A DNA stretch of 42,430 nucleotides from Bacteroidales bacterium (GTDB lineage Bacteria > Bacteroidota > Bacteroidia > Bacteroidales > P3). This document shows positions 4,487-29,287 of the stretch, one piece after another; the first letter of the stretch is position 1, and each line of letters opens with the position of its first letter. The stretch spans positions 1-42,430 of the forward strand of contig JAFRRK010000056.1 in assembly GCA_017428115.1 (NCBI GenBank), written 5' to 3'. The translations under genes were made by a program, and so were the position numbers. The notes below the pieces were generated by a model. The model did not search any database. It worked only from the letters and a program-made list of their open reading frames with translations, and was not told the DNA's origin.

Positions 4487-5341
4487 TTATTTCATTCTAG
4501 CCACAGCAGTGGAAACTTTGTTCATACCCTTAGCAGCAGTGAGGGTCTGATTCACGATATTGGCGGTGAGGCTCTTGGTACTCAGAGCAGGATCGTTGAA
4601 GTCAATAGTCGTGAGGTAGCCATCAGAATTTACCATCTCGGTGACATGAACCATCTCGGCGTTCACCACGGCACTCATCGTCATAGCATCGGCATCAAGA
4701 GCAGTGATGTTGTAGGTCAGGCTCTTTGCCCACCAATCGCCAGTACGGTTCTGTTCGCTCAAGTCCCAAGAGGTGCTTTCGTAGTACCACAGCCAAGCTT
4801 GTTGACCAAAATGAATGTTTACCATATTGTTATCACCTTCTTCCATCCAAGGACCATCAGTGATTGTGCCAGTGGTGGGAGCACCGCTAAAGTAGCACAT
4901 GAGGTAGAAAAGAGGATAAGATGAGGGGTTTTCACTCTGGGTAGCAGCAAGGAGGATGGCGTTGGAACCCATGGAACCATTAGTGTAACCAGCAGTCCAA
5001 GTGTTAGTACCGAAGGTGACGTTCACGCCTGCAATCTCTGCGAAGTTGGCGGTGTAGGTGGCGTTGGCGGTAACGTTGACGAGGCGGGGATTGCTCTCGT
5101 TGCCATCGCTCCAGTTGACGAATCTGTAGCCCTCGTTGGGGGTAGCGGTCAGGGTGGCAGTAGCTGCAGAGTCGTAGGTGCCGCCGCCGGTCACGGTGCC
5201 ATAAGCGTCGTTGTTGGCAGTCACAGTGATGGTGTACTGGGGAGTGCTGGGTTCAGGGGTCACATTCTCAGGTTCGCAGCTGGCAAACATCATTGCACCA
5301 GCAGCAAACATCATGCTAAGAAATTTAACAGTGTTTTTCAT
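4487..5341 (-). CDS. Lipoprotein with InlB-type B-repeat domain
   Basis: The product has 284 residues with a lipoprotein signal (MFASC, Cys22). Residues about 36-98 form a divergent InlB B-repeat, seen as YTITVTANNDAYGTVTGGG, then ATLTATPNEGYRFVNWSDGN and the closing YTANF. This beta-grasp-like repeat is common in secreted Bacteroidetes and Firmicutes proteins and is presumed to mediate contacts. Residues 105-284 form an unidentified beta-rich domain with many aromatics (WLWYYEST, GDWWAK). Its end, from about residue 250 (DFNDPALSTKSLTANIVNQT), may be a short helix-rich tail. The gene is probably first in a two-gene operon with 4046-4468. Confidence 0.85.
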   Translation of the reverse strand: MKNTVKFLSMMFAAGAMMFASCEPENVTPEPSTPQYTITVTANNDAYGTVTGGGTYDSAATATLTATPNEGYRFVNWSDGNESNPRLVNVTANATYTANFAEIAGVNVTFGTNTWTAGYTNGSMGSNAILLAATQSENPSSYPLFYLMCYFSGAPTTGTITDGPWMEEGDNNMVNIHFGQQAWLWYYESTSWDLSEQNRTGDWWAKSLTYNITALDADAMTMSAVVNAEMVHVTEMVNSDGYLTTIDFNDPALSTKSLTANIVNQTLTAAKGMNKVSTAVARMK

Positions 5342-14250: not shown

Positions 14251-15561
14251 CTAGATGATTTCAGCTGTGATGATGTGGCTTGTTTCGGAAGTGATGCGGT
14301 GGGGATGGCTGGTGCGTCGTCCTACAATCCAAAGGATGCTGTCGGTGGCATCGACTAGTATTAGCTGTGACTGCTTTTCTGGTTGGCTGTAGTGGTGATC
14401 GGAGAAGTAGTCACTAATAAGTTGTGTTCCATGAGCCATTCCCAGAGGTTGGAAGCGGTCGCCGGGTTTCCAATGACGTAAGTGGAGTGGGAGTGTGATG
14501 GTGTCGGCATCGAATGCCGCACGATAAGGGGGTAGCTGTTTGGGGTCGAATCCTTGGGGAGAGATTGTGCTAATGATGAGCGAGGGTATAGCGGTTGGGT
14601 GGTTTTGGGTGGGACAGATGAGGAGGTAACCGCGATTGAGATAGGCGGTATGTGTGGAAGAATAGAATGTTTTGCCAGGTTGGGTGGCGGCAAGGATGTT
14701 GGCTACCGTTGAGGCATTGAAGCTATAGGGTTTAAGTATTTCGTAATAGAGCTGTTGTCGTAGTTGTGGGGAGTTGGTGTGATGCAGAGGGGCGGGTAAG
14801 GGGTTGCAAAGGGAGATGCGGATAGTGTTATCGGGTTGAAACTGTACTAGCTGTTGCCGTAGTGGATTTATGAGTGTTTGGTATAGTTGTTCAACCGATT
14901 GAAGATGCGAGACGGTTTGTTGTATAGTGCGGTCGGCGGCAGGCTGTAGTTGACGTAATAGCGGCATCAGTTGGTGACGTACCTGGTTGCGTAGATAATC
15001 GAGAGAGGCGTTGGTAGAGTCTTCAACGTGAGGGAGGTGCTGTTGGGAAGCGTATGCCACAATTTCGGTTCGGCTAAATGGTAGGAGTGGGCGAACGATA
15101 TGTCCTTGTATAGGTAGAATGCCGTGGAGGCCAGATAATCCTGTGCCTCGGAGTAGGTTGAGGAAAAGGGTCTCGTTTGAATCGTCGCGATGATGAGCGG
15201 TGATGATTGCAGCATAAGAGTATTTGCAGCGAAGTTGTTCGAAGTATTCGTATCGCAGTTGCCGCGCGGCCTGCTCGATACTCTGGTGGCTGTTAGTAGC
15301 ATGGGACATGGTGTCGAACTGAGCCACATGTATTGGTACGCCATAGGAGCTGGCAAGTTGACGTACGAATGTCTCGTCGCGGTCGCATTCGGAAGGTCGC
15401 AAGTGAAAGTTGCAATGGGCTATGGCGAAGGGGTAGCCGGCAGAGTGCATGAGGTGGGTTAATACGACGGAGTCTATACCACCGCTAACAGCAAGCAGCA
15501 CCTGCTGCCCTGTGGGGAAGAGGTGCTGCTGCTGAATGTGTGCTATGAACTCTTTTAGCAC
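14251..15561 (-). CDS. tilS: tRNA(Ile)-lysidine synthase
   Basis: The product has 436 residues, the usual TilS length, starting at GTG 15561. The PP-loop motif SGGIDS (26-31) activates tRNA-Ile with ATP; downstream are HCNFHLR, ITAHHRDDSNETLFLNLLRGTGLSGLHG and RPLLPFSRTEI, all TilS hallmarks. A C-terminal TilS_C region (about 350-436) has LRHWKPGDRFQPLGM and DYFSDH. The enzyme changes the wobble cytidine of one tRNA-Ile to lysidine, which is essential for AUA decoding. The GTG overlaps the TAG stop of the giant cargo gene by one base (TAGTG), so it is probably translated by coupling. A terminator follows its stop. Confidence 0.94.
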   Translation of the reverse strand: MLKEFIAHIQQQHLFPTGQQVLLAVSGGIDSVVLTHLMHSAGYPFAIAHCNFHLRPSECDRDETFVRQLASSYGVPIHVAQFDTMSHATNSHQSIEQAARQLRYEYFEQLRCKYSYAAIITAHHRDDSNETLFLNLLRGTGLSGLHGILPIQGHIVRPLLPFSRTEIVAYASQQHLPHVEDSTNASLDYLRNQVRHQLMPLLRQLQPAADRTIQQTVSHLQSVEQLYQTLINPLRQQLVQFQPDNTIRISLCNPLPAPLHHTNSPQLRQQLYYEILKPYSFNASTVANILAATQPGKTFYSSTHTAYLNRGYLLICPTQNHPTAIPSLIISTISPQGFDPKQLPPYRAAFDADTITLPLHLRHWKPGDRFQPLGMAHGTQLISDYFSDHHYSQPEKQSQLILVDATDSILWIVGRRTSHPHRITSETSHIITAEII

Positions 15562-18500
15562 TAGCGGATAATCATCTTGTGCATACGACGTTGACCATCG
15601 AATTCTAGGCCATAGTAGTATACGCCGCTGGGCAGAGAGCCTTTGTTGAAGGTGATGGTGTGACGACCTTGGCTGTAGTAGTTGGTCTGTTCGTTGACAA
15701 GGCGTCCTACCACATCTGTGACAAAGAATCGTGTTTTGCCGCTGTAGGGTAGCGAGAATTCAATGCGAGTAGAACCGTCATAGGGGTTGGGGTAGTTCTG
15801 TTCGAGTACAAAGTTAGGTTCGTCCACCTCTGGTATGTTCTCGAAATAGTTGAGTACTTCAATGTGGGTAGTTTGGTTATTATTGGGATTGATATCGACG
15901 GTCGGCGTAGTGAATGAACCACTTCCAATGTATTCGCGAGTGCGGCTCTTAGGAATCTTTTTGTTAAGCAATACGTGGCGTTCTTCGCCGGGCTCGAATA
16001 ACATTGTGCCCTCTTCGATGATGTTGCGTTGGCGTTGGCCTCCATTGATGGTATAGTCTAGTGTGATACGTCTAAAGAATTGGACGTTACCATCGTTGCG
16101 AATGACAGCACGCACACGACAGGAGTCGGACATGTTTTCTTCAACTTGGATTTTGACAAATTCCATGTCGTATTGGTATTCTTGGATGACAATGGAGGTA
16201 TCGTTGCGATGGTTGGTATCGCCGGGTACGCTGCAATAGACGGTGAGATAGTTCCAAGGATTTGAGCGAGAGGGTTCTCTACGGCTAAAGCGGTGGACGG
16301 CACGGCCTCCAGATGCAAGTGGCAATGCTCGGTAGAAGGTCTCTTCGAAGCGCGTTGAAGTGTCGCGGTCGATGTAGTATCCTACGGTGAAGCTGTTGGC
16401 CGCAAGGGCACCCACATTGTCGAGGATGGCACAGATGTGGATGTCATTCTGGTCACGTTCGTCGATCATACCTGCTGTGGCTTGGATGTCGGTGATGGCA
16501 GCTATGCCTGCGACTTGCTTGGAGACGGTGTCGTTGTATGGATAGACATCGTTTTCGTAGGTGCACCAAGTGGTGAGGCGCATGGTGCCCATGGTGGCAC
16601 GTTCGCGATGGCGGAAGGTATAGTTGAAGAATTCAGTAGAGCCGAGGTTGCGGCCAAGGTAGTCGGTAAAACGTATGTGCTCCGAAACGGTGTCGTTGTC
16701 ATTGTAGAGGTAGTGTACGTCGCATTCTTCGATTTCGTTCTGTCCAAAGTTACGTAGGAGGACGGTGATGTTGATGCTGTCGCCTGCAACGGCACTGGCT
16801 AGCGGTGAAGTGATGTCGTAGAGGTAAAGGTCGTTGGCGAGTGGCGCCAGTCCAAATGTTTTGCAAGTAGTGTCGTTGTCGCGATAGTAGTCGGACTGTA
16901 CCTTTGTGAAGGCGCAGATGTCAAAGGTGTCGGGGAATGCGCTAGTGATGACGAAAGGTGTCGGGAATTCGAATTCGATGTCTTCGCCTGACGGTATCTC
17001 GGTAGTGCAGATGGCTTCGTGTGGTAGGTAGGTGCCATAGGGTTGATAGCATACAGTGAAGTCGCTGATGTTGTCGTAGCCGTAGTTGTGGATACGGACA
17101 CGTGGATAAATGGTCTGACCAAACTGCGGAGAGGTGGGATACAGAATTTCGCGAACGCCTACATCTACAGAGCGCTGTGCGCGGCCAATAACCATATTGT
17201 CGATGGCAACACCATCGCCAAAGTTGGCGGCAGGTGAGGTTGAGACGGGTGTTGTGAATACAAAGCGGAATTGTACCCTCTGTGCAAATTCACCGCTGAT
17301 ACGTGAAGTTGGGAAGGAAAGGAATTCGTAAGCCCCATTGATAGAGGAGCCAGACCAACCTTCTTCCTGAGTGTACCAACTGCCAGCATCCTCTCCTGTT
17401 TGGCCGGCCTCCCAACGAATATCAGGATCCTCTACTTTTTCCCATTTTCCTAGGTAGTCGAGGTACTCCATCTTGAGGAGTGCGCCTTCGGCCATATTCT
17501 TACTGAGGAGGAAGGTGATGGTGTCGGGACGAATTTGTTGGATGTTGATTATAGGTGTGTAAAGCACGCTGCGGTTGCCATGTTTGCCAGAGACAACGGA
17601 TTCGGTGGTACTGGTGATATAAACGTTCGGTTGAGAGTAGGCTGACGAGATGTTGGTCTTGGCAGGCATGCCACGCTCAAAATAGTTGCGGGTGAAGTTG
17701 TTGTATCCAACTGGTGCATACCATTTGTCAATTGTTTGGTCGAAACTATCGATGAAACGTGGTTCGACTACAAAGAAGCGATGGTATTGATATTGTAGTG
17801 TGTTGTTGGTGGTGTGGAAAGTATCACCTTCTGCTTCAACGGTGCAGGTGAGGTTGGTGGTACCCTCAACGAAGTATACGGAGTCGATGGTGACGGGCGT
17901 GCTCATGCCGGGATCAAGGAGACCGGTCCAATTGATGGCGCCTCTGTAGTAGGGTTCGGCACTGTTGACACTCATGAATCGATAGTTGATGGTGGCTTGA
18001 GTGAGTGGTTCGGAGCCCTTGTTTGCCAACATGATAGTGACATGGTTGTCGGTATCGGTGACGATGTGTTTGCGTGGGTATGCGACACGTGTAAGTGCTG
18101 CATCTACTGTATCGAGCATGCAGTCCTCTTGTACATAAAGTAGGTATTGTTGTAGTTGTCCATTATCATGGGCTGTGGCAGTGTAGGGTCCATTGATGTT
18201 GAGCGTGGAGTCGCCATGTACCCAAACAAGCATTCTCATGTAACCGTAGTGGGCATAGTCAGGAATGGTGAGAGGTAGTTTGAATTCCCGACGGCTGCGT
18301 ACCTTGACTGCATTGGAAATAGAAGCACGACGGGTAAGATTCTCATTGCTATTGAAGTCGTATTGTCCATCGCGGTTGTAGTCGATTGCGATGCATAGGG
18401 TGGCTGCGGTGTTGGAATCCATTTCGTCAAAAGTGTTGGCCACCTCGACGGTAAGTGTGTCTTGAGTACCTCGACGGATATATAGGGTTGGTACTTCGGC

Positions 18501-21500
18501 GTAAGTTGGGTTGTAGGATCCCAGCCACAGATTGTCGTAGCCGATAAGGTCGGGCATTTGGTTGTCAAGTTCGTTGAAGGAGACGTGTGTGATGTTGAAT
18601 CCATCGACACTGCTAGGAGTGTATTTGTTGATAGTGTCGTAGATGGTTTCTGCCAATGAACGGAAGGTGTGGAGGGTTCGTAGCGTGTCGTTGCCATGTT
18701 GCTGGTCATCGGGATGATAAACCCAGGCATTAAGTGTGAATGTGGTATTCGAGAGAGGCTGATTGATTTGTAGCATGGCTGTGTCGTCGAGACAGCCTCC
18801 GAATGTGTGGTCATAGTATGAGACATTGTCCCCCACACGTCCAGGAATAGTGGCACGGACGGTATCGTGAACTTCGAGATAGGTGATACGGCCATTGGCA
18901 TTCATGAACTTGAATGCGATGGGTATGTTGGAAATGGGTTGGCTACCATAGTTGACAACACGGAGTGTGACGGTGTCTTTTTCAAGATACACACGACCAC
19001 TGCCTCGCGGCGAGCGTACTTCTGATATGGAGACATCATAGGTGAGCGGCATGTTGATTCCAACGTTGATGTTTGAGTAGTAGCTTGTGCAGTTGCGCGA
19101 GCTGAGGCAGTAGAGGTAGTAGAGCGAGTCGTGGAAGTATTGAGGTGTGTTGCTCCAGTGGGTGGAACGGTTGTAATTGTTGTTGCCGTTGTAGAAGAAA
19201 CTGCCATCAGTTGTGTCGCGAGTCCAACGGATGACGCGTGATTCGCCCTGAGTGGCCCAGAGGTTGCCATACGTACCATAGTCTACCATGGTGTCGTGGG
19301 CGATAGGGGCATCGGGTGTGTGGTTGGATGTGATATTGATATAGCTGGATGTGTCGTTATGCTGCTTGATGTCGTATTGTGCCGTTACGAATCCACGGAG
19401 GCGGGCGGTGATGTCAAGTAGTGTGCCTGTGGGGTATAGGTTGGGCTCATAGGTGGGTGTAAGGGTCACCTCACGTTGAGTGCCTACGGGAAGAGCTGTG
19501 CCGGCAAATGTCTGGATATCGAGGCTGCTGCTTCCAGGGAAGTTGGGGAAGCTCTGCGTGGAGGGTTGGTGGCAATAGTAATCGTAGCCGAGAGTGAAGT
19601 TGAAGTCGCCGGGGAAGTCTTTCTTACCAGCATTCTTGAGGGTGTAGCGTAGTGGCACACTGAACATACGGCAGTGGTTAGGGTCGCAGGTGCTGTCAAC
19701 AGCCACCGAGACAACCTGGAGATCATAGGCAGGATAGATGAATACTTGAGCCGTGTCTACGTTGTCTTCGGGACGTTGGTCTGTTGCAGAGTTGCCCAAA
19801 TTGAGGACAACAACTATGTTTTGTGTGTCAACAATGCCAAGAGGCGATTCGAGAAGTACGGAGTCTTCAACAAATGATTGGGCGGCCAGACGATTAATGG
19901 TACGTGTCACAGACTGAACCAGAGGATATGTGTCAGCCATATAGCAATACCAAGTGAGGTTGCTCTCAACAGCTGTTCCGTTGTTGAATAATTTTACACG
20001 CACCATGATAGAATCGGTTTCGATGTTGAGCACGGTGGGGTTGGCTCCAGTGGTTATAGCCGGGACATAAGGTTCTGTAATCTCGGCAATGGCAACATCG
20101 TGAGTCTGTCGTATGCAGTTGAATTCGTAAGCACCGATAGTGGGTTTAGGAATCTGTGGACGGATGCATCCTCTAATGTCTGTGATGACATCAGGATTGT
20201 ACTGAGCACGGTCGGCATATTGCGCCAAGAGGGTTTGCAGATTATATATGCTATCAATAAAGTAAGGATAACTTTGGTAAGAGTTATTGTCAGTGTGGTT
20301 TATCAGCCGCAGGCTATCGAGGTTGTTGCAGTTCACACCCCAATAGGCAAATTTGATGACACCTGTAGTGGCATGGGTATCGGCATTGGTCCAATATACA
20401 TTGTAATTGGAGCTCGACATGCAAGTATCGATAGCCACATAGTAGGCGAAGCCCTTACTCTCGTTCTTGAAGATGTTGTTCAACGTATGAATGTACGAAG
20501 AGTTTTGGCAGCTAAATGTACGTGTGGCTGATTGGTTAGGACCGGCATAAAGGTTACAGGTATTATAGTAGACGCTTACGTGTTTAGAGAGTGAGTCGAC
20601 CCAGATGCCAGAAGAAGATAAAGAGGCCACGCCCGTACCATATAATGATACCATATTGTTATAAACGGTAACACGGTCGATGTTGGTGCCTCGGCAATTG
20701 AAAAGGGCAATACCACGCTTGCCGCCATTTCTGTTATCTATCAGGTGCACGTAGTTGCGCTGAATACTGGCGTGGTGTGCCCCTGCAATATAGATGCCTG
20801 TAAGGGGTTTGCTTGCAACTGTCACACCTGAAGCAATGCTGTCGCCATTAACAACAACGGTGTCAGTATTGCGGATATATACGCCCTGGTACCAGAAGTT
20901 CAAAATGTCGGAATTGATAATGGAGATATTGTCGCTATAGCTGTTGCCAACCGAACGAACCGAGTAATATCCACTATCAAGCAGGCAGTTGTTGACAGTG
21001 ATAAAGTGGTTGTTGTCGCCTAGCAGCAGTACGTTGGCATTGGTTGACGAGGCAGTCGTTTTCTTGGAGCGAAGTACACAATTGTGGAAAGTGACGAAGT
21101 TTGATGATTCTACTTTGGCCACATTGGCGAAAATGTTGTTGCCCGAACCAGAAGTGTAGTTGGCGTAGAAAAAGATGCTGTCGAAGTTGATGTATTCAGC
21201 ACCAGAAATATTGATAACATAGTTGCTGGCATTAGTAGGTGTGTGGGTGATTGTTGCCATCCCGCCGGCGCCAGACTCAGTCTTGAATGTGATCGTGTTG
21301 TTGGCATCAGCGCCATCGATATGTTCGAAATTGAGTTGCTCGTTAAAGGTCTGCTCGCATAGCTCGAATACTACGGGCCCTGCAACACCAGCGTTGTGGA
21401 GTGTATCAAGGGCTGTTGAAACATCGGCATAGTCGCTGCCGCATGATCCAATTGTATATGTGCCTGCACAGAAGCGGACATTGAAAGTGCGTATAATGGT

Positions 21501-24500
21501 GTCGTTGGTTGGGACTGTGTCACCTGAAATATTGACCACAGCGGTGACTGTGTGGCGTCCAGGAGTGAAATGTGTGCTCAACAGTGGCACCGTACGTGTG
21601 TAACCCAGTGGCAGATTGTTGGCATTGCCAGTTATTTGCTGCCAACTGCCGTTGTCTATCTTATAACGTAGTGTGTAGTTGGATATATCGTAGTTGCCCC
21701 TATTCTCCAGCACCACACTCAGATTTGTAGTGTCGCACGAGGCAATAACTGTTGTGTCAAGTTCTGCTGTCCAATGGATAGAGGCATCGTTGTCGGGAAT
21801 GTTGGTGACATTAATGTAGATGGGGGAAGTGGGACTTTCGCAGCCAACAGGCTCAAGGAATCCGAAGAGGATGTCGGGACGGTTGTTGCCCTTAGTGCCC
21901 GATGTCTGAGAGGCTTGGTCGGTGGTGGCGTGTTGTTTCGTGATGACAGTGTTGGCTTGAGCGGTATAGCGTGTCTTTACGCCGTTGGTGGGTCCTGCTG
22001 CATTCAGACCACGGGTTATTTCGATGACAATATTGGACGTGCCATCCCATGCAAAAAGTGTGTCAAGAGTATGTTTTATCCATCCAAGATTGTCGTTTGT
22101 AAATGTGTAGTTTGTTCTATTGTACACCTGTGTCAGTCCCGTGATGAAGGTGCCGTTAGCAAAGGTGCTTTGGCTAACAGTGCCCATCTTAATGGTGAAG
22201 TAGTCAAAAGTGAACGTGGTCACATTGGCACCAAACTCTTCCATATAGAATGAAAGTGAGCTCATATCACCTGCCCCGTGGCCTGCGTCTTGTAGCTGTT
22301 GTGCGGTAATGAGATACTGCTCCTTCACATACCTCTGTTTTGGATTGTAGGGTGAAGGATAGCTGTTGTTTGATACCATTGCCAGGGTGCCGATATGTGT
22401 GGTAGCAACATCCTTAAGTGCCACTGAGCGGACATACATGGTGTCGCGGCGGTATATGTAGTTGGTAGTGTACGACCCCGGTGTGGTGGCAAGAGCGTTC
22501 ATATTGATATCGTACCAAATGGTGTGGTCGGAAGCGGGCAGGTCAGTGGCAGTCATTGTGAGGCGTTCGCCATAGCTGACTGTTTGAATTGAGTCAATCT
22601 GTGGGATGGAGGGGGTGTAGTAAGCATTAAAGTAGCCTTGGTTAGTATCGTTCAAGTGGTTGACATCACCGCTTACAGCGTCCACCCATGCCTTTATATG
22701 AAACACGGTGTCGTGGCTGGTCAGCATATTGATGGGTACGCTGAATGTATGGTATATCTCTGAGCGGACTCCTAACCCCGAAGCAATGGTGTCGCTACAG
22801 GCTATGGTGGCACCACCGTCAAGGCTGTACTTTATCACCACAGATGGAACAGGGTTAGAACCATAGTTGTGCACCAGCACAGAGACAGCCTCTGCTGCCG
22901 TGAGGTTACATCCGGTGTCTACTACTGGTTCCTCAACGTATAGGTCGGTGCTGGGTATGCCTGTTACGTGAATGTTCACAGCCGAACGGAATCCCTCGCA
23001 TCCATTGTCGTAATAGCGGATGAGATTCTCTTCGGTCTCACCGATGTGCATGCGTAGCGAGTCGGTGGCCACTTGCCATAGCGAGGCACTTGCTGTGGGC
23101 GATGCATTGGCGGCATTGGTAGGCCATGCAATGCGGCGTGCTCCGGCGGTAGCTGTGTTGGCGGTATTGCCATTGCGGGCTAGATCGATAGCACTTCCCT
23201 GCCATACGGCTGCGGGTATCTGTTGATTGCTCCAGTTGATGGCCTGGCTTGATGGGGTGGATATGACACCATTGAAAGCTACGGCATCAGCTACGCCATT
23301 GCCATCACGGTAAATAACACCAAAATTGGCGGTATATGCAGGTGCCACAACTGTTGAGCTCGGCGCATAAATGGTACGGGTCGAGTCGCTGCCTGTAGAG
23401 ACTGCTCTATATTGTAGTACCAGATTGTCTCCGGGTTGAATAGTGACGTTGGGAAGCTCCCATATCTTGGCTGCGCTGTTGCTCTGCACAATCAGGATGC
23501 TGTCGCCTTCCAGATTGGCTGGATAATCTCCACAGTTTGTCAGCTCAATGGCAAATGCGGTCTGGGTGTTCATCCACGATGGCATGGGATATGTGGCACC
23601 AGCAGCCGTGCGGTTCACCTGCACCTCGGTAATCTTTACCAATGGCAGGTTTCGCTTCTGTGAGATATAGAAGGTCGTATCGTCATACAGCGGTGTGGTG
23701 GTCAGTGTAGGACCGTAGAAGAAGGCTGCGGTGTCTTCCATGCTGTGGTACCATGAGATGCCGGAACGCTGTTGGCGGCCGTTGCCTGAGGTGTAGTAGC
23801 TCACAGGCCATGTGTTCACTCCGGCTGTCGGAGTGATGCTGGCCGTCGTGTTGTAAGCCACATTCTGATTGATGACCGTTGGAGCGGGGGCCGCATATCT
23901 CGAAATCACCGTCCAGATGGCAGTGTCATTCAAGTCGTCAGGGTCAAGATTGCATTTCACCCACCACTTAATAATATATGTGCGGTCGGTATTGCCAGCA
24001 CCGCTGGGTAGCGACATTGTGCGGGTGGATAAGAAATGTATCGTGTCGTTAGGACCACAGTTACGGTTCACCACAAACGATTGTACTGGCCCGTTGTCAA
24101 TGCTATAATATACTGTCATGGGCGATGCGCTACTGGCCGTGTAGGTGCCATTACCAGTGTTTCTGACAGCCACTTCCACAGGTATGCTTGCCGGCGCGCC
24201 GCAATAGTCTTCCATGGGAGTTACAAATTCTTCAGGTTTGAAGTCCACCGACAGAGCTGTCACCTCATAGGCACCTAGGCTGGGAGCTGTGGCAGAACGG
24301 GTAGAACCGAAAAGGTCTATAGTCACCTCTGGTACGGGTACACCCACGTTACGAAGCAGTGCGTTGAACGAGCGTAGGTCAACCCGGCTCACCGAGCCGT
24401 TGGTATAGTTGGGGTTGCCGCTTACCGAGCCTACATCGCCCGGCACTGCGGAGCGCCAACCATTCAGGTTGTTGTAGTTCGAACCGCTCAACTTGTTAAG

Positions 24501-27500
24501 CACACCACTAATAGAATAGTAGCAGTTGTGGTCCACATGCAGATTGGCTGTGTTGTCGCCAGGTATGAACGAGAAGGAATAATTCGAGGTGTCGAACGTG
24601 GCTATTACATTATTTTGGAAATAGCTGTTGCTTATAATGTCGCCACCAAAGGTTGCAGCTGCCACATTCACACGTGTTGGGGCATTCATCCTCACCGAGT
24701 TGAACACCGTCTTTATATACGACCCCTTAATAATGTTCAGGGGCGTGGTCAACATATTGCTCGTCCCATCGTCAACCGAAACCAACATGTTGTTGGCAAC
24801 TATACAGTAGTTGTCGGCATTACCGTGCATGTCTGAAACACCGATACAGCAGGTTCCCTTCGAAGAATAGACTCTGTTACGGGTTATCTGTGTACCGTTG
24901 TAGCAATACTGTCCAAGAATGATATAGCTGGCATTGGTCAGCACGTCGTTGGCAAAATTACTGTCGATAATGGCAGCATCTTGGTTAACAATGCGTATGG
25001 CGGTGTTGACCTGATTGCTAAAGTTGTTAAGGGCCACACGGTTGTATCTGGCGCGTACGTCAGGTGCAGGACCCGTCACATCAACACCTATCGTACCACC
25101 GTAGAAGGTGCAGTTCGCAATCAGCACCGAGTCGGCATCGCCAGTGTTAATCAGCGATTGTGCTGAATTGTTGATGGTGTTACTATCAGCAAACATACAG
25201 TTGAGGAACTGGCAGTGTGCACTGTTTTCGCCCAACTGGACCAACACATCGCAGCGGTTGTCGGCGTAGCGGCCATTCGAAAATCTGATATTATTAAAAC
25301 GAATGCCGCGGGCCTCAGTCATGTCTACCAAGGCTGGCACGTTCTCCGTAAAGCCCCTACGGGTACGGCGGAATGTTACTGTTCCCGCGGGTGTGGCAGG
25401 CTCAAATAGTACGTAGCAGCTGTCCGATGTGCCGGGAATATAGGGGAACTTAGTCACATCATATATTCCAGCAGGCAACTTAATGGTGAGAGGTCCGTTA
25501 ATACCACAGCGGCTCAGCACATACAGGCAGTTCTCCAGCGAGCTGAAATTAGCACTCGAACCTGTGCCCACAGTGCGCACACCGTTGTACGGCCCGTCGC
25601 AGGCAGCAAAGGGGGTGAAGAGTGTGTCGTTGTATGGCTCGTGGTCGCGCATACGTAGTGTGTCGATTGTAATCGTATCGTCCACCCATGCTCTGATGGT
25701 ATGGTAGCCAACGGTGAACAACTGGGAGTCGCACACATGCACACGCACACTGTCGCCGCCGTTTAGCGTACCCGTCCAATCATAGTGTATAAAGTTGCCG
25801 TTATCAACACGATACCATATACGCACCGCATTCATAGGGCTTACTCCATAGTTCTTCAGCCACACAACCACAGAGTCTGTTCCTGTGTTGCAAGGTGTAT
25901 TGTAACTCGGGTAGGCCATCGCTGAAATACCGCAGTCGTACACCAGCGGAATATTCTTTGTCTCAAAAAACTGCATCCAAGGACGAGATGTGGCATTCTC
26001 GCCTACACTTATTCTCGCCAAGTCTGAGCCGAATAACGAAAGATGATACGATGCTTCAGCAACGTCCGAATATATCGATTGTTTGTCGGTGGGGGTGGGA
26101 ACATGCTTAATTTCGTGCCCATAAGGCATATTGTAGTTGTCGTCATATATCACCTGTATTACAACGTCAGAGCCCGAGTAGAAGAAGGTGTCCTGCAGGT
26201 TGACAGTCTTATATGAGCCTGCTGCTGCCTGTTCTATGGTAAATGCCGAATCGTATACAATCTGCATCTCCGATGTGGTAAAGACTCCATTTGTCCCCGT
26301 GCGTATTTGTGAGTATGGGGCATTCATCATGCGGAATTGCAGTCTGGCTCGGGTCACCGTACTAGGCGATGATCTGAGTATAAATCGGAAACTGTTGATA
26401 TATCCTGGCCCAAACCCCATCTCAGCCATTGTCACACTGTCGTATATCCATTCCGACCGGTTGTCTGCCATCCAGGGGAACGGGAATACGTAGCTATTGG
26501 TTTGTGGGCCTTGTGGAGTGCCTGTGTTTGTTCGCCCTCGCACGCATCGGTAAGTCTTCCATTGGTTCGAGTTCTTGGGGAAATATGCAGTGTTGTTGTT
26601 TCTTGTCGAGTCTTTCGCTATTACGTGATAGTGAATCAACGTGTCGTAGCCGTACATCGGTATGCGGCCTTCGAAACGGTTGGTACCACTACGGCGAGTC
26701 ATTGGAATCCTGTGCTCTGTCGGGTTGTTGCCAACACGGTACACTACATACACCGAGTCACTGTTGATGCCTTGTGTCACAGTGGTCGTCACATCGGCCA
26801 TTATCTTTGCGCCACGGCTGCTAGGATAGTCCAGATGGTCAGGGAATGAGCGCATCGTAATCGTAGGTGTCACCATCTGCTGGCTGGACGCCCTGATTCG
26901 TATGTCGTCAATATACCAACCCGCTGTGCTAGTGGCCAATTGGCGAGCACCTAGCTTGAAACGTATTTGCAACTTCAAATATTGGGGATCCAACACACCG
27001 CGGAGCAGCGTTTCCAAATTAAAACGCTCCTTTTTCCACAGAGTATTGTTTGCTGATGGGGCCGACTCCCAGTCATAGTACGAGTTTGTACTGAACGACG
27101 CTGTACTAGAGAACTCGGCACTACCTCCTTCTCGTGTGTCATAGTGCGTACTACCCAGCTGCGTCCACAACGTCTGGTCTATTCGTTTTGCCTCAATCAT
27201 ACACACCTCCATTCGCGTACCCTCTGGTTGGTGTAGTGGGTTGACAAATGCAATGTGCATGAATTCAAGAGTGAAATAGTTGAAGTCCGTGTTGAACGAA
27301 AAGTCAATGGTGTCCAACAACACTTCAACCGTCTGACTCTGCGTGTGCGTCATCTTCAAAGCGCGGTTGCCGCCCGACACGATGCTTGTCTGGGTGGCTG
27401 CTTGTGTACTTGATGCCGTATAGGTGGCAGGTGTTCCTGTCTCAAAATCCTGTGAGTAGATTTCATAGATTTGGGCATGGGACACAACTGCCGTTAAGGC

Positions 27501-27536
27501 AAAAATCAGTCCTAAGAGCAAAAACCTTTTTTTCAT
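15561..27536 (-). CDS. Giant T9SS type-A cargo protein, multimodular (3991 residues)
   Basis: One uninterrupted frame encodes 3991 residues. A signal peptide ends at VVSHAQ. The layout, with approximate residues, is: jelly-roll/MAM-like domain 25-220; beta-sandwich module 345-540; CARDB-like domain about 550; beta-helix 645-1092 ending GAYEV; CARDB about 1097; a lamin-tail-like domain about 1250-1450 (ITEVQVN, FAIELTN); CARDB about 1540; a second beta-sandwich module about 1720-1860; CARDB about 1925; second beta-helix 2022-2472 ending GAYEFNC. Then come CARDB-like repeats, a GEVED-like domain about 2993-3105 (AIDYNRDGQYDFN), a second MAM-like domain 3260-3450, further CARDB-like repeats, and a type-A sorting tail at 3905-3991 (NYPNPYDGSTRIEFSLP, FVTDVVGRLV, PSGVYYYGLE). 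It is predicted to be secreted and attached at the cell surface. No enzyme motif was found, so adhesion is inferred. Confidence 0.93.
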   Translation of the reverse strand: MKKRFLLLGLIFALTAVVSHAQIYEIYSQDFETGTPATYTASSTQAATQTSIVSGGNRALKMTHTQSQTVEVLLDTIDFSFNTDFNYFTLEFMHIAFVNPLHQPEGTRMEVCMIEAKRIDQTLWTQLGSTHYDTREGGSAEFSSTASFSTNSYYDWESAPSANNTLWKKERFNLETLLRGVLDPQYLKLQIRFKLGARQLATSTAGWYIDDIRIRASSQQMVTPTITMRSFPDHLDYPSSRGAKIMADVTTTVTQGINSDSVYVVYRVGNNPTEHRIPMTRRSGTNRFEGRIPMYGYDTLIHYHVIAKDSTRNNNTAYFPKNSNQWKTYRCVRGRTNTGTPQGPQTNSYVFPFPWMADNRSEWIYDSVTMAEMGFGPGYINSFRFILRSSPSTVTRARLQFRMMNAPYSQIRTGTNGVFTTSEMQIVYDSAFTIEQAAAGSYKTVNLQDTFFYSGSDVVIQVIYDDNYNMPYGHEIKHVPTPTDKQSIYSDVAEASYHLSLFGSDLARISVGENATSRPWMQFFETKNIPLVYDCGISAMAYPSYNTPCNTGTDSVVVWLKNYGVSPMNAVRIWYRVDNGNFIHYDWTGTLNGGDSVRVHVCDSQLFTVGYHTIRAWVDDTITIDTLRMRDHEPYNDTLFTPFAACDGPYNGVRTVGTGSSANFSSLENCLYVLSRCGINGPLTIKLPAGIYDVTKFPYIPGTSDSCYVLFEPATPAGTVTFRRTRRGFTENVPALVDMTEARGIRFNNIRFSNGRYADNRCDVLVQLGENSAHCQFLNCMFADSNTINNSAQSLINTGDADSVLIANCTFYGGTIGVDVTGPAPDVRARYNRVALNNFSNQVNTAIRIVNQDAAIIDSNFANDVLTNASYIILGQYCYNGTQITRNRVYSSKGTCCIGVSDMHGNADNYCIVANNMLVSVDDGTSNMLTTPLNIIKGSYIKTVFNSVRMNAPTRVNVAAATFGGDIISNSYFQNNVIATFDTSNYSFSFIPGDNTANLHVDHNCYYSISGVLNKLSGSNYNNLNGWRSAVPGDVGSVSGNPNYTNGSVSRVDLRSFNALLRNVGVPVPEVTIDLFGSTRSATAPSLGAYEVTALSVDFKPEEFVTPMEDYCGAPASIPVEVAVRNTGNGTYTASSASPMTVYYSIDNGPVQSFVVNRNCGPNDTIHFLSTRTMSLPSGAGNTDRTYIIKWWVKCNLDPDDLNDTAIWTVISRYAAPAPTVINQNVAYNTTASITPTAGVNTWPVSYYTSGNGRQQRSGISWYHSMEDTAAFFYGPTLTTTPLYDDTTFYISQKRNLPLVKITEVQVNRTAAGATYPMPSWMNTQTAFAIELTNCGDYPANLEGDSILIVQSNSAAKIWELPNVTIQPGDNLVLQYRAVSTGSDSTRTIYAPSSTVVAPAYTANFGVIYRDGNGVADAVAFNGVISTPSSQAINWSNQQIPAAVWQGSAIDLARNGNTANTATAGARRIAWPTNAANASPTASASLWQVATDSLRMHIGETEENLIRYYDNGCEGFRSAVNIHVTGIPSTDLYVEEPVVDTGCNLTAAEAVSVLVHNYGSNPVPSVVIKYSLDGGATIACSDTIASGLGVRSEIYHTFSVPINMLTSHDTVFHIKAWVDAVSGDVNHLNDTNQGYFNAYYTPSIPQIDSIQTVSYGERLTMTATDLPASDHTIWYDINMNALATTPGSYTTNYIYRRDTMYVRSVALKDVATTHIGTLAMVSNNSYPSPYNPKQRYVKEQYLITAQQLQDAGHGAGDMSSLSFYMEEFGANVTTFTFDYFTIKMGTVSQSTFANGTFITGLTQVYNRTNYTFTNDNLGWIKHTLDTLFAWDGTSNIVIEITRGLNAAGPTNGVKTRYTAQANTVITKQHATTDQASQTSGTKGNNRPDILFGFLEPVGCESPTSPIYINVTNIPDNDASIHWTAELDTTVIASCDTTNLSVVLENRGNYDISNYTLRYKIDNGSWQQITGNANNLPLGYTRTVPLLSTHFTPGRHTVTAVVNISGDTVPTNDTIIRTFNVRFCAGTYTIGSCGSDYADVSTALDTLHNAGVAGPVVFELCEQTFNEQLNFEHIDGADANNTITFKTESGAGGMATITHTPTNASNYVINISGAEYINFDSIFFYANYTSGSGNNIFANVAKVESSNFVTFHNCVLRSKKTTASSTNANVLLLGDNNHFITVNNCLLDSGYYSVRSVGNSYSDNISIINSDILNFWYQGVYIRNTDTVVVNGDSIASGVTVASKPLTGIYIAGAHHASIQRNYVHLIDNRNGGKRGIALFNCRGTNIDRVTVYNNMVSLYGTGVASLSSSGIWVDSLSKHVSVYYNTCNLYAGPNQSATRTFSCQNSSYIHTLNNIFKNESKGFAYYVAIDTCMSSSNYNVYWTNADTHATTGVIKFAYWGVNCNNLDSLRLINHTDNNSYQSYPYFIDSIYNLQTLLAQYADRAQYNPDVITDIRGCIRPQIPKPTIGAYEFNCIRQTHDVAIAEITEPYVPAITTGANPTVLNIETDSIMVRVKLFNNGTAVESNLTWYCYMADTYPLVQSVTRTINRLAAQSFVEDSVLLESPLGIVDTQNIVVVLNLGNSATDQRPEDNVDTAQVFIYPAYDLQVVSVAVDSTCDPNHCRMFSVPLRYTLKNAGKKDFPGDFNFTLGYDYYCHQPSTQSFPNFPGSSSLDIQTFAGTALPVGTQREVTLTPTYEPNLYPTGTLLDITARLRGFVTAQYDIKQHNDTSSYINITSNHTPDAPIAHDTMVDYGTYGNLWATQGESRVIRWTRDTTDGSFFYNGNNNYNRSTHWSNTPQYFHDSLYYLYCLSSRNCTSYYSNINVGINMPLTYDVSISEVRSPRGSGRVYLEKDTVTLRVVNYGSQPISNIPIAFKFMNANGRITYLEVHDTVRATIPGRVGDNVSYYDHTFGGCLDDTAMLQINQPLSNTTFTLNAWVYHPDDQQHGNDTLRTLHTFRSLAETIYDTINKYTPSSVDGFNITHVSFNELDNQMPDLIGYDNLWLGSYNPTYAEVPTLYIRRGTQDTLTVEVANTFDEMDSNTAATLCIAIDYNRDGQYDFNSNENLTRRASISNAVKVRSRREFKLPLTIPDYAHYGYMRMLVWVHGDSTLNINGPYTATAHDNGQLQQYLLYVQEDCMLDTVDAALTRVAYPRKHIVTDTDNHVTIMLANKGSEPLTQATINYRFMSVNSAEPYYRGAINWTGLLDPGMSTPVTIDSVYFVEGTTNLTCTVEAEGDTFHTTNNTLQYQYHRFFVVEPRFIDSFDQTIDKWYAPVGYNNFTRNYFERGMPAKTNISSAYSQPNVYITSTTESVVSGKHGNRSVLYTPIINIQQIRPDTITFLLSKNMAEGALLKMEYLDYLGKWEKVEDPDIRWEAGQTGEDAGSWYTQEEGWSGSSINGAYEFLSFPTSRISGEFAQRVQFRFVFTTPVSTSPAANFGDGVAIDNMVIGRAQRSVDVGVREILYPTSPQFGQTIYPRVRIHNYGYDNISDFTVCYQPYGTYLPHEAICTTEIPSGEDIEFEFPTPFVITSAFPDTFDICAFTKVQSDYYRDNDTTCKTFGLAPLANDLYLYDITSPLASAVAGDSINITVLLRNFGQNEIEECDVHYLYNDNDTVSEHIRFTDYLGRNLGSTEFFNYTFRHRERATMGTMRLTTWCTYENDVYPYNDTVSKQVAGIAAITDIQATAGMIDERDQNDIHICAILDNVGALAANSFTVGYYIDRDTSTRFEETFYRALPLASGGRAVHRFSRREPSRSNPWNYLTVYCSVPGDTNHRNDTSIVIQEYQYDMEFVKIQVEENMSDSCRVRAVIRNDGNVQFFRRITLDYTINGGQRQRNIIEEGTMLFEPGEERHVLLNKKIPKSRTREYIGSGSFTTPTVDINPNNNQTTHIEVLNYFENIPEVDEPNFVLEQNYPNPYDGSTRIEFSLPYSGKTRFFVTDVVGRLVNEQTNYYSQGRHTITFNKGSLPSGVYYYGLEFDGQRRMHKMIIR

Positions 27537-27623
27537 TTGTATTATTGTATTTTATTTGTTATCAGTGTTTTTTAAATATAATATATCGGCTTTTTCGCAG
27601 AAAAAGCTATTTTTTTCAATCTA

Positions 27624-27654
27624 CAAAGATACGAAGAAAAAATGAATCACCAAT
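27624..27654 (-). promoter_or_regulatory. Promoter of the giant cargo gene
   Basis: Minus-strand TATCTTTG (27631-27624), preceded by G, matches the -7 consensus; ATTG (27654-27651) is 19 bp upstream as -33 box. It lies 87 bp before the start codon, leaving a leader of roughly 80 nt. Confidence 0.65.
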
Positions 27655-28134
27655 TTTTTTTTATTTTTTATATTTATATAGTTCACTTTTTTCCCCCTCT
27701 TTGTCTCTCCGCATTCCGCACTCACTTTGTTTCTCTCTCATGTCGATAATCCCAATATCCCCCCATACTATATACTGTCAAATCTGCTCAAATCGTCACC
27801 CTTTCCTCTATTCTTTTATGATTTTTTATGAAATTGTTTAGGTTTGACTGGCGAGGTTTGTTATAGACAATAGTTTGACAAGTAAAAGTAAAATGATAAG
27901 TGAAACCAGACATACATTCCGACTTGATTTTTGTCATACGCTTTTGTTTCCCTTTTCACGGTCATCGGTCGGGTTGTTTAGTGCTGGAGGTGGCCTGCCT
28001 TGTTCATGCCTTCGCCCTGTTTCCGTCTCTGGAATCGAAGGCACGACGAAGACACGATGAAGTCGTGGCGTGTGATTGCAGTGTGTGCTACCGACCGTCT
28101 GATATAATTATACCGAAAAAGGCAAAAAATTAGG

Positions 28135-28164
28135 GTGCCACTTTTCGAAAAAAAAAAGTGGCAC
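28135..28164 (-). terminator. Hairpin, possible terminator
   Basis: A perfect 11-bp inverted repeat, GTGCCACTTTT paired with AAAAGTGGCAC. On the minus strand it is followed by CCTAATTTTTTGCC. It lies about 355 bp after the rlmB stop, which makes terminator function possible but not certain; it could also be part of a repeat element. Confidence 0.4.
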
Positions 28165-28519
28165 AACGTTGTGCGAAGCGTGAAAGCACGCTTTCATTGC
28201 CAAGCCAAAGAAACGTCACGGAGTAAAGTGGCACATGATGACGATGACAATGACAATGGGGATGGATGCGCGTATCACTTTTTTGAAGAAAAAATGACTC
28301 GTCAAACTTTAGTAAGATGAGTTATAGTAATTCGATTTTGAGAGCGCGTGCCTTCGGCACGCTGAGATGTATTCGACTGATATGCCCCACACTATAAGTG
28401 CGGGGTTGTTGAAAGTGTGCCCCTCCTGGGCGGTTAATAGAAGTCTCCGTAAGTATAGCCCACAATGGTCCGACCCTAATTGCTCCGACCATTGGCTAAC
28501 TGTCTTTGATGCACTGACG

Positions 28520-29287
28520 CTATCTGCGTTGGCGTAACACCTCGTAGAGGAACACTCCTGCTGCCACGCTGACGTTGAGCGACTGTATTTGCCCTAATAA
28601 GGGTAGTTTGGCACGTGTGTCGGCAAGTTTCAGTAGTTCAGGGCTGATGCCTGTCTCTTCCGCACCCATTATTAGCAGGGTGGGTAGCCTGAAATCAACA
28701 TCGATATAGTCGGTTGCTCCCTTCTCAGTGGCGGCAACCACCTGTAGCCCGCATTGCTTGGCTAGGTTCAGCACTGTCTTCAAGTTCCCCTCCCTACAGA
28801 TAGGCATCCGCAGCAGTGCTCCCGAAGAGGTCTTTACTGCATCGTCCCCCACCTGTGCGCTGCCGTGGTCGGGTATTACGACGGCATCCACGCCTGTACA
28901 TTCGGCCGTACGTACTATGGCACCAAAGTTGCGTACATCCGTTACATGGTCAAGCATCAGCAGTAGTGGGGCTTTTTTTTCTTCCATCAGCTTGGGTATC
29001 ATCTCTATTGCCGAGTGGTAGCGTATTGGGGCAATCAGTGCTACTACGCCTTGGTGATTGCCTTTCGTGAGTCGGTTCAGCTTCTCGATAGGGACGAATT
29101 GGAAGGGTATGCCCTTGTCGTGTATACGGCTCTTCAGCTCGCTGGCCAGTGTGCCCGTCAGCCCGTTTTGGAGTAGCACTCGGTCTATCTGCACGTCTCC
29201 CTCTATCGCTTCCATCACCGGCCTCAGGCCGCATATCGGCAGTGTGGATGTGCCGCTGGTCTGTTTGTTTTTATCGGTTTGTATCAT
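28520..29287 (-). CDS. rlmB: 23S rRNA (guanosine-2'-O-)-methyltransferase RlmB-type (SpoU)
   Basis: The product has 255 residues: a small N-terminal substrate-binding part (CGLRPVMEAIEG, then FVPIEKLNRLTKGNHQGVVA) and a SpoU knotted methyltransferase domain. Three SpoU motifs are clear: LDHVTDVRNFGAIVRTAE, LLIMGAEETGIS and QSLNVSVAAGVFLYEV, which together bind S-adenosylmethionine. The family methylates a ribose in 23S rRNA; RlmB (G2251) fits best, but a related TrmH-like tRNA enzyme cannot be excluded. It starts 10 bp after the lolD-like gene and is probably the last gene of the ruvB-hutI-lolD string. Confidence 0.88.
   Translation of the reverse strand: MIQTDKNKQTSGTSTLPICGLRPVMEAIEGDVQIDRVLLQNGLTGTLASELKSRIHDKGIPFQFVPIEKLNRLTKGNHQGVVALIAPIRYHSAIEMIPKLMEEKKAPLLLMLDHVTDVRNFGAIVRTAECTGVDAVVIPDHGSAQVGDDAVKTSSGALLRMPICREGNLKTVLNLAKQCGLQVVAATEKGATDYIDVDFRLPTLLIMGAEETGISPELLKLADTRAKLPLLGQIQSLNVSVAAGVFLYEVLRQRR

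What the first reader, a model, noticed from the sequence alone, without database searches (positions are those of the whole stretch)
15561..27536. 12-kb giant cargo gene with an internally duplicated architecture
The order beta-sandwich module, CARDB-like domain, beta-helix ending GAYE appears twice, around residues 345-1092 and 1720-2472. At least twelve CARDB-like repeats, two MAM-like domains, a lamin-tail-like part and a GEVED-like domain are strung with a type-A sorting tail. This points to growth by duplication. Secretion by T9SS follows from the tail; adhesion is inferred.
Basis: partly seen in the sequence, partly recalled or inferred. Interest (0 to 1): 0.7.

Follow-up and report, generated by a model that had tools for sequence, protein, structure and literature searches.

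The report
Giant surface protein with frozen architecture
A 12-kb gene in an uncultured Bacteroidales bacterium with relatives in the rumen encodes a 3,991-residue exported surface protein whose repeated parts are very old; its length and layout stay almost constant across the genus, unlike other giant surface proteins checked in the same genome.

Summary
Window 15561-27536 (minus strand) is one open 3,991-aa gene. Blocks at residues 335-1096 and 1710-2475 are homologous end to end (profile E 2.5e-52; 21-23% identity; nothing at DNA level). Twelve CARDB-like segments, a type-A T9SS tail and a GEVED-like region are supported; MAM and lamin-tail labels are weak.
Growth by duplication needs correcting: it is not recent. 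The gene occurs, whole or in part, in 37 of 41 genus genomes and in both sister-genus genomes seen; 30 intact copies measure 3889-4036 aa. Both blocks therefore predate the genus split. The sandwich-CARDB-helix block is common in Bacteroidales cargo, and each block scores higher on some outside blocks than on the other. Whether A and B are sisters is unresolved (AU p 0.16 and 0.29).
New: the gene is frozen. It has one copy, about 1% length variation, purifying selection and a fixed place before tilS. Of two other giants checked, one is a multi-copy mosaic and one is intermediate. A two-species clade lacks the gene. Best reading: an anchored long rod or adhesin.

The parts
15561..27536 (-). giant T9SS type-A cargo gene, 3991 aa
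   Evidence: single open reading frame; 29 of 31 orthologous stretches fetched hold it as one closed ORF
27474..27536 (-). apparent Sec signal peptide, residues 1-21, with Q22 as likely mature N-terminus
   Evidence: by eye; no predictor run. Q22 in 30 of 30 orthologues; fits the Bacteroidetes Q-rule (PMC5837995, start of abstract seen)
26871..27473 (-).
   Evidence: conserved in orthologues and at the N-terminus of many outside giants; weak Pfam hints; weak PDB match to xylanase C, E 0.0074
26535..26870 (-). conserved linker domain N2, residues 223-334
24249..26534 (-). block A: beta-sandwich (335-530), CARDB-like (531-645), helix module (646-1096)
   Evidence: one clade of 12 helices and of 10 whole blocks
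23892..24248 (-). CARDB-like C1, residues 1097-1215
   Evidence: hhalign 99% with C2
23646..23891 (-). Ig_7-like repeat 1, residues 1216-1297
   Evidence: hhalign 95% with Ig2 and Ig3; Pfam Ig_7 in 9 of 12 orthologues
23007..23645 (-). lamin-tail-like region, residues 1298-1510 (label weak)
   Evidence: Pfam LTD in 1 of 12 orthologues
22617..23006 (-). CARDB-like C2, residues 1511-1640, best Pfam CARDB match
   Evidence: (stretch 1530-1634)
22410..22616 (-). Ig_7-like repeat 2, residues 1641-1709
20112..22409 (-). block B: beta-sandwich (1710-1900), CARDB-like (1901-2022), helix module (2023-2475)
   Evidence: one clade of 12 helices and of 10 whole blocks
19323..20111 (-). CARDB-like C3 and C4, residues 2476-2738
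   Evidence: C3-C6 95%, C4-C1 96%
19059..19322 (-). Ig_7-like repeat 3, residues 2739-2826
18672..19058 (-). CARDB-like C5, residues 2827-2955
18117..18671 (-). GEVED-like domain, residues 2956-3140
17781..18116 (-). CARDB-like C6, residues 3141-3252
17169..17780 (-). C-terminal domain (CMAM; jelly-roll-like only by guess), residues 3253-3456, identity not established
   Evidence: conserved near the C-terminus of many outside giants; no PDB match and no consistent Pfam match
15822..17168 (-). four CARDB-like segments C7-C10, residues 3457-3905
15564..15821 (-). type-A T9SS sorting domain, residues 3906-3991
14251..15561 (-). tilS directly downstream, same strand
   Evidence: Pfam ATP_bind_3; downstream on the same strand in 29 of 29 genus orthologues tested
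28520..29287 (-). SpoU-type rRNA methylase, upstream neighbour
   Evidence: upstream in 24 of 29

Best explanation
The gene encodes a very long, many-domain surface rod. It is exported by Sec (apparent signal peptide, mature N-terminal Gln), carried across the outer membrane by T9SS, cut at its C-terminal domain by PorU and left attached to the cell surface. Most of its length is a string of CARDB-like and Ig-like units that act as a stalk. The two sandwich-CARDB-helix blocks and the N- and C-terminal domains are the likely ligand-contact parts, for plant polysaccharide, another cell or host glycan. The architecture was put together long ago from cassettes shared by a Bacteroidales-wide group of giant T9SS cargo. 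In this family it then became fixed: one orthologue per genome, constant order and length. SHOWN: gene, homology of the blocks, family-wide conservation, tail and sortase, conserved place before tilS in the genus, purifying selection. INFERRED: surface anchoring, rod shape, ligand contact, adhesion.
For: Tail over the cut-offs; PorU present; 82 Por_Secre_tail matches at E <= 0.001 in the genome; Q22 invariant in 30 of 30. Thirty intact copies of 3889-4036 aa, mean 3960, sd 39, with identity to the window down to 34.5%. All 25 segments in order in 4 of 4 named orthologues, three of which were not used to build the models (L062 is the contig of G005, which was). Same order of domain types in both sister-genus proteins. 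dN/dS about 0.1 over the whole gene for one unsaturated pair (dN 0.038, dS 0.40). Contrast: a 2923-aa giant of the same genome matches 41 of 41 genus genomes only by partial pieces outside its own genome, and a 2226-aa one mostly so. Order-wide group with common end parts and variable interior. A weak match of the N-terminal domain to a xylanase (E 0.0074) is a faint hint of carbohydrate contact. [quoted passage not shown]
Against: No structure could be predicted, so the rod shape and the helices rest on sequence. No ligand-binding family is matched over a cut-off beyond CARDB, whose link to adhesion is its recalled name. A clade of two species lacks the gene with neighbours in place, so it is dispensable. 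Only two other giants served as contrast, and the 2226-aa one is intermediate: 4 of 40 other genomes have over 90% coverage and 7 more have 76-80% in ORFs of 2157-2436 aa. The window gene was searched with residues 1-2492 only, the other two whole. The order-wide modules occur in proteins of unknown role.
Confidence: 0.55

Rival explanations
1. Recent growth by duplication inside this gene: the block was copied in this lineage and the gene is still growing.
For: End-to-end homology of A and B.
Against: About 23% identity and no DNA repeat; both blocks in the 30 intact copies and in the sister genus; length sd about 1%; each block's profile scores higher on some outside modules than on the other block.
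Confidence: 0.02
2. Ancient tandem duplication within an ancestor of this protein, with A and B as sister modules that later diverged (against separate recruitment from a pool of cassettes).
For: Not rejected by AU tests: p 0.155 on 66 helices and p 0.286 on 55 whole blocks.
Against: Best trees place them apart: A plus B form one side in 0% and 2% of 200 bootstrap trees. Ten of 15 outside second helices, from four families, cluster together (100/96), which points to old, position-linked copies.
Confidence: 0.35
3. Structural coat: it is a surface-layer-like or matrix protein that covers the cell rather than a ligand-binding adhesin.
For: One conserved copy, fixed length, T9SS export; T9SS mutants of Tannerella forsythia lack their S-layer (PMC4175972, start of abstract seen).
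Against: No match to S-layer families in Pfam or NCBIfam for the window protein or 12 orthologues; two species do without the gene.
Confidence: 0.12
4. Polysaccharide-active enzyme: one or both helix blocks are lyase- or epimerase-like catalytic units.
For: Weak matches of block B to alginate C5-epimerase 4 (E 0.018) and of 1 of 30 members to GH28 (E 2e-4); rumen Bacteroidetes do export multi-modular CAZymes by T9SS (PMC5831590, passages seen).
Against: The matches are weak and consistent with a shared helical fold alone. Many invariant block residues are Gly, Asn, Pro and Cys; I recognised no catalytic motif, but ran no active-site search.
Confidence: 0.1
5. Polymorphic toxin or contact-killing filament.
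For: Large T9SS-linked polymorphic toxins exist in the phylum (TANFOR class, PMC7073777, passages seen). One of 30 block-B members matches a pre-toxin domain (PT-VENN) at E 0.04.
Against: No TANFOR, toxin or immunity match for the window protein or its neighbours; the PT-VENN match is weak and single; the C-terminus is a T9SS tail in 12 of 12 orthologues scanned with Pfam and 11 of 12 with NCBIfam. The defence-system library was not searched.
Confidence: 0.02

Closest known systems
CARDB/beta-helix T9SS type-A cargo of Bacteroidales (uncharacterised order-wide group mapped here)
   Same: N-terminal domain, sandwich-CARDB-helix blocks, CARDB-Ig_7 cassettes, GEVED, C-terminal domain, CARDB pair, Por_Secre_tail
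   Different: Outside this family interior order and copy number vary and several paralogues share a genome (six mapped in G122); here order and length are fixed, with one orthologue per genome
SprB of Flavobacterium johnsoniae (giant mobile adhesin; size and type-B tail recalled)
   Same: Very long repetitive T9SS-exported surface protein
   Different: Type-A tail here; no SprB repeat matched in Pfam; gliding genes were not searched for
TANFOR polymorphic toxins (PMC7073777, passages seen)
   Same: Large Bacteroidetes proteins linked to T9SS
   Different: No TANFOR domain, no toxin C-terminus, no immunity gene matched
T9SS multi-modular cellulases of rumen Bacteroidetes (PMC5831590, passages seen)
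   Same: Long, modular T9SS cargo in rumen bacteria
   Different: No glycoside hydrolase domain matched in the window protein

Membership tests
T9SS type-A cargo | C-terminal Por_Secre_tail / TIGR04183 over curated cut-off | tested here: met
   31.6 vs 27 bits; 28.6 vs 23 bits
T9SS type-A cargo | Sec signal peptide at the N-terminus | tested here: inconclusive
   Looks like one by eye and Q22 is present in 30 of 30, but no signal-peptide predictor was run
T9SS type-A cargo | PorU sortase in the genome | tested here: met
   NF033707 949.5 bits, cut-off 420
T9SS type-A cargo | Export, cleavage and surface attachment shown | not testable with these tools
   needs a culture
CARDB-domain protein | Pfam CARDB over curated cut-off | tested here: met
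   41.6 vs 22.7 bits; 12 of 12 orthologues match
GEVED-domain protein | Pfam GEVED over curated cut-off | tested here: inconclusive
   23.2 vs 24.4 bits in the window protein; E <= 0.01 in 11 of 12 orthologues
MAM-domain protein | Pfam MAM family match | tested here: not met
   0 of 25 C-terminal; 1 of 25 N-terminal (InhA-like MAM, E 0.084)
Lamin tail domain protein | Pfam LTD match | tested here: inconclusive
   1 of 12, E 5.1e-4
Right-handed beta-helix protein | Pfam Beta_helix match; coil periodicity; structure | tested here: inconclusive
   8 of 30 block-B members, the window's own not among them; no 22-25-residue periodicity; structure not available
Recent internal duplication | blocks closer to each other than to outside modules | tested here: not met
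   profile scores
SprB-type gliding adhesin | SprB repeats and type-B tail | tested here: not met
   type-A tail; no SprB repeat matched; CHU_C only 15.4 vs 27 bits

The most novel reading that the evidence does not exclude
A fixed-length surface ruler: within a genus where at least one other giant T9SS protein is constantly reshuffled, this giant is held to 3960 +/- 39 residues and a set order of 25 domains because its reach matters. Its length would set a standard distance from the outer membrane at which end or helix domains meet a partner, and its placement before tilS would tie it to growth. Species without it (two of 41 genomes, one clade) would be natural knock-outs.
Probability: 0.13. 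Interest if true: 0.65.

Novelty: new member of a known kind. Interest (0 to 1): 0.4.

Why it matters
Giant repetitive surface genes are usually treated as fast-changing. This one is a 12-kb gene, nearly universal in its genus, whose length and order are fixed while its sequence falls to 35% identity, beside giants that change more. It gives a contrast for asking which surface proteins are under length constraint, and a naturally lacking clade for comparison. It also maps a Bacteroidales-wide group of giant T9SS cargo with common end parts and interchangeable interior cassettes.

Tried and rejected
Self-BLAST of the whole protein gave no off-diagonal rows, so blocks were compared directly and by profile.

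Recent duplication was rejected. A firm claim that A and B were separately recruited was also dropped: AU tests do not reject A plus B as one clade.

Frameshift or assembly artefact was rejected. The one broken copy seen is G025 (L050), split by one in-frame TGA in helix A; it was left as two pieces and dropped from the alignments, as was L059 (runs off its contig). L036 was also left out of A1 (29 rows), and five of 30 rows out of A7 and A8 (25 rows each).

MAM and lamin-tail labels were tested and not upheld. A search for coil periodicity gave nothing clear; one peak above shuffles (Asn, 30.5 residues, in helix B) was not followed. Phage, plasmid and E. coli collections were not searched.

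The genus name UBA1711 is a guess from L060, a relative with 56% identity in its best segment. Two papers place UBA1711 in rumen Bacteroidales (PMC11542596, PMC11156634; passages seen).

In one search a greedy count of own-named segments gave 24 of 25 (L199) and 19 of 25 (L200). One search, by best non-overlapping hit, shows the same order of domain types in both. I use for those two and take the shortfall as a limit of the greedy script.

Paper searches for this family or its architecture listed nothing whose title or abstract start describes it. Only PMC open papers are held, and most listed papers were not opened, including PMC10266427, which holds the word CARDB.

Full report
WHAT IS THERE. 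Window 15561-27536 is one minus-strand ORF of 3991 aa with an ATG start. The window is contig C50 of an incomplete 2.78-Mb genome (80% complete) that carries 82 Por_Secre_tail matches at E <= 0.001 and a PorU sortase. Housekeeping genes flank the ORF: tilS, a UvrD-type helicase and methylmalonyl-CoA mutase on one side; a SpoU methylase, an ABC transporter, an amidohydrolase and RuvB on the other.

THE REPEAT. Residues 335-1100 and 1710-2480 align end to end (23% identity, E 7e-14; SW 264 against a maximum of 110 in 300 shuffles). With profiles from 30 orthologues the match is E 2.5e-52 over 704 columns. An all-against-all profile comparison of 25 segments, cut by me, recovers 12 CARDB-like segments, 3 Ig_7-like repeats, 2 sandwiches and 2 helices; the two end domains called MAM-like are not shown to be related to each other. 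At DNA level there is no repeat.

CONSERVATION. A search with residues 1-2492 found the gene in 33 of 37 genus genomes, the window's own included; G008 and G033 are partial there and G025 has an in-frame TGA. A C-terminal piece in G013 and orthologues in G283, G285 and G286 make 37 of the 41 genus genomes seen. Of the four without it, G010 and G032 (82% and 73% complete) also lack a tilS match and a close SpoU match, so the locus is probably missing from the assemblies. G014 and G284 (97% and 92% complete) have SpoU and tilS directly adjacent and only partial, weak block-B matches; they form one clade in a TilS tree (SH-aLRT 99). In a TilS tree without G284, G014 branches first in the genus (88/85, not starred). 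Both sister-genus genomes seen have the gene (stop-to-stop ORFs of 3907 and 3912 aa). There it lies on a different contig from tilS, with no match to the window's tilS or SpoU in the 1.8-3.2 kb fetched on either side. The simplest reading is a family-old gene that moved in front of tilS in most of the genus and is absent from one clade, by loss or because it never settled there.

Thirty intact copies (window plus 29; L050 and L059 dropped) are 3889-4036 aa long, mean 3960, sd 39, with identity to the window down to 34.5%. All 25 segments are found in order in L060-L063 (4 of 4); L062 is the same contig as G005, which was used to build the models, so three are independent. TilS lies downstream on the same strand in 29 of 29; by tblastn ends the gap is 6 nt or less, or overlapping, in 23 of 29. 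SpoU lies upstream in 24 of 29; three of the other five have under 1 kb of upstream sequence, two (L037, L042) have about 4.9 kb without it. The unsaturated pair L035/L036 gives dN 0.038 and dS 0.40 over the whole gene; window/L029 is saturated at synonymous sites.

CONTRAST. Two other giant cargo genes of the same genome were searched in 41 genus genomes. The 2923-aa one matches in 41 of 41 but by many pieces; no single listed match in another genome covers more than about 65% of it, and the ORFs that hold listed pieces run from 601 to 6806 aa. The 2226-aa one also matches 41 of 41 and is intermediate. Four other genomes (G283, G028, G020, G006) have over 90% coverage with ORFs of 2196-2236 aa; seven more (G017, G030, G027, G021, G032, G018, G011) have single pieces of 76-80% in ORFs of 2157-2436 aa; the other listed pieces are shorter. 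Both lists are cut, best first. So the window gene is clearly unlike the first and somewhat unlike the second; other giants were not tested, and the window gene was searched with its first 2492 residues only (the rest was read from the fetched stretches).

THE WIDER GROUP. Profiles of block A and B match 136 and 152 of 247 genomes drawn from the order. In a phylum sample block B matches 96 of 296, and the listed matches outside the order are partial. I mapped the 25 segments on 28 ORFs of 1000 aa or more from outside-family stretches chosen for their block matches. Sixteen of 28 have the N-terminal domain, the C-terminal domain and the tail; several others are cut by contig or stretch ends, and some intact ones lack a part (for example L212, L213, L226, L228). 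The common plan is: N-terminal domain, linker, sandwich-CARDB-helix, then interchangeable CARDB-Ig_7 cassettes with sandwich, lamin-tail-like, GEVED or helix parts, then the C-terminal domain, two CARDBs and the tail. The interior varies.

ARE A AND B SISTERS? In a tree of 66 helices A (12 rows) and B (12 rows) are each one clade and are separated by outside rows; in a tree of 55 whole blocks likewise (10 rows each, 100/99). The AU test does not reject joining them (p 0.155; p 0.286). What is firm is age: both blocks predate the split from the sister genus. By profile score each block finds outside blocks that it matches better than it matches the other (B: up to 405 bits outside, 118-201 on A; A: up to 261 outside, 111-153 on B, in four orthologues). 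The outside figure is a best of many, and A's longer branch may account for part of the difference.

HOW IT PROBABLY WORKS. Sec export, Q22 exposed (30 of 30), T9SS passage, PorU cleavage, LPS-type anchoring. These follow from the tail and sortase and from established T9SS biology (PMC9143113 and PMC5837995, starts of abstracts seen). The chain of 12 CARDB-like and 3 Ig-like units suggests a long stalk; the helix blocks and end domains are the candidates for ligand contact. Three of the four named relatives come from sheep rumen, goat rumen and goat reticulum MAGs, so plant fibre or other rumen cells are the likely partners. That is inference. Matches of block B to alginate epimerase (E 0.018) and of the N-terminal domain to a xylanase (E 0.0074) are weak.

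VERDICT. A real, old, conserved giant T9SS cargo gene. The repeat is genuine but ancient, and its unit is a widespread cassette. The new point is fixity of length and order beside giants that change more.

Noticed in passing
G121:C35 (L214, L215, L216): An 11,871-aa open frame in another Bacteroidales family holds about 26 tandem copies of a roughly 436-aa module that matches the block-B helix: a giant made almost only of this module.
   Followed up: partly
L255 15442-17548 (G014) and L259 238-2217 (G284): SpoU and tilS are adjacent without the giant gene in two sister species, a natural empty site.
   Followed up: yes
L050 4924-16797 (G025): The orthologue is split by one in-frame TGA into 823 and 3134 aa pieces; true break or sequence error is not known.
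   Followed up: no
window 3-2708 (-): A second likely T9SS cargo with Ig_7 and CHU_C domains (902 aa in the window) runs off the window edge.
   Followed up: no
window 4487-5341 (-): 284-aa protein with a divergent InlB B-repeat domain (Flg_new_2), perhaps another surface protein.
   Followed up: no
window 27537-28519: 983-nt intergenic stretch before the giant gene; near the start is TATCTTTG, like the recalled Bacteroidota -7 promoter motif, followed by a hairpin-like repeat in the leader (sequence).
   Followed up: no
block A residues 646, 677, 780, 809: Four cysteines are invariant in all 30 rows of block A; disulphides are possible.
   Followed up: no
G285:C25, G011:C4, G010:C53: ORFs of 6806, 6805 and 6124 aa in the same genus hold partial matches to the queries; not examined.
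   Followed up: no
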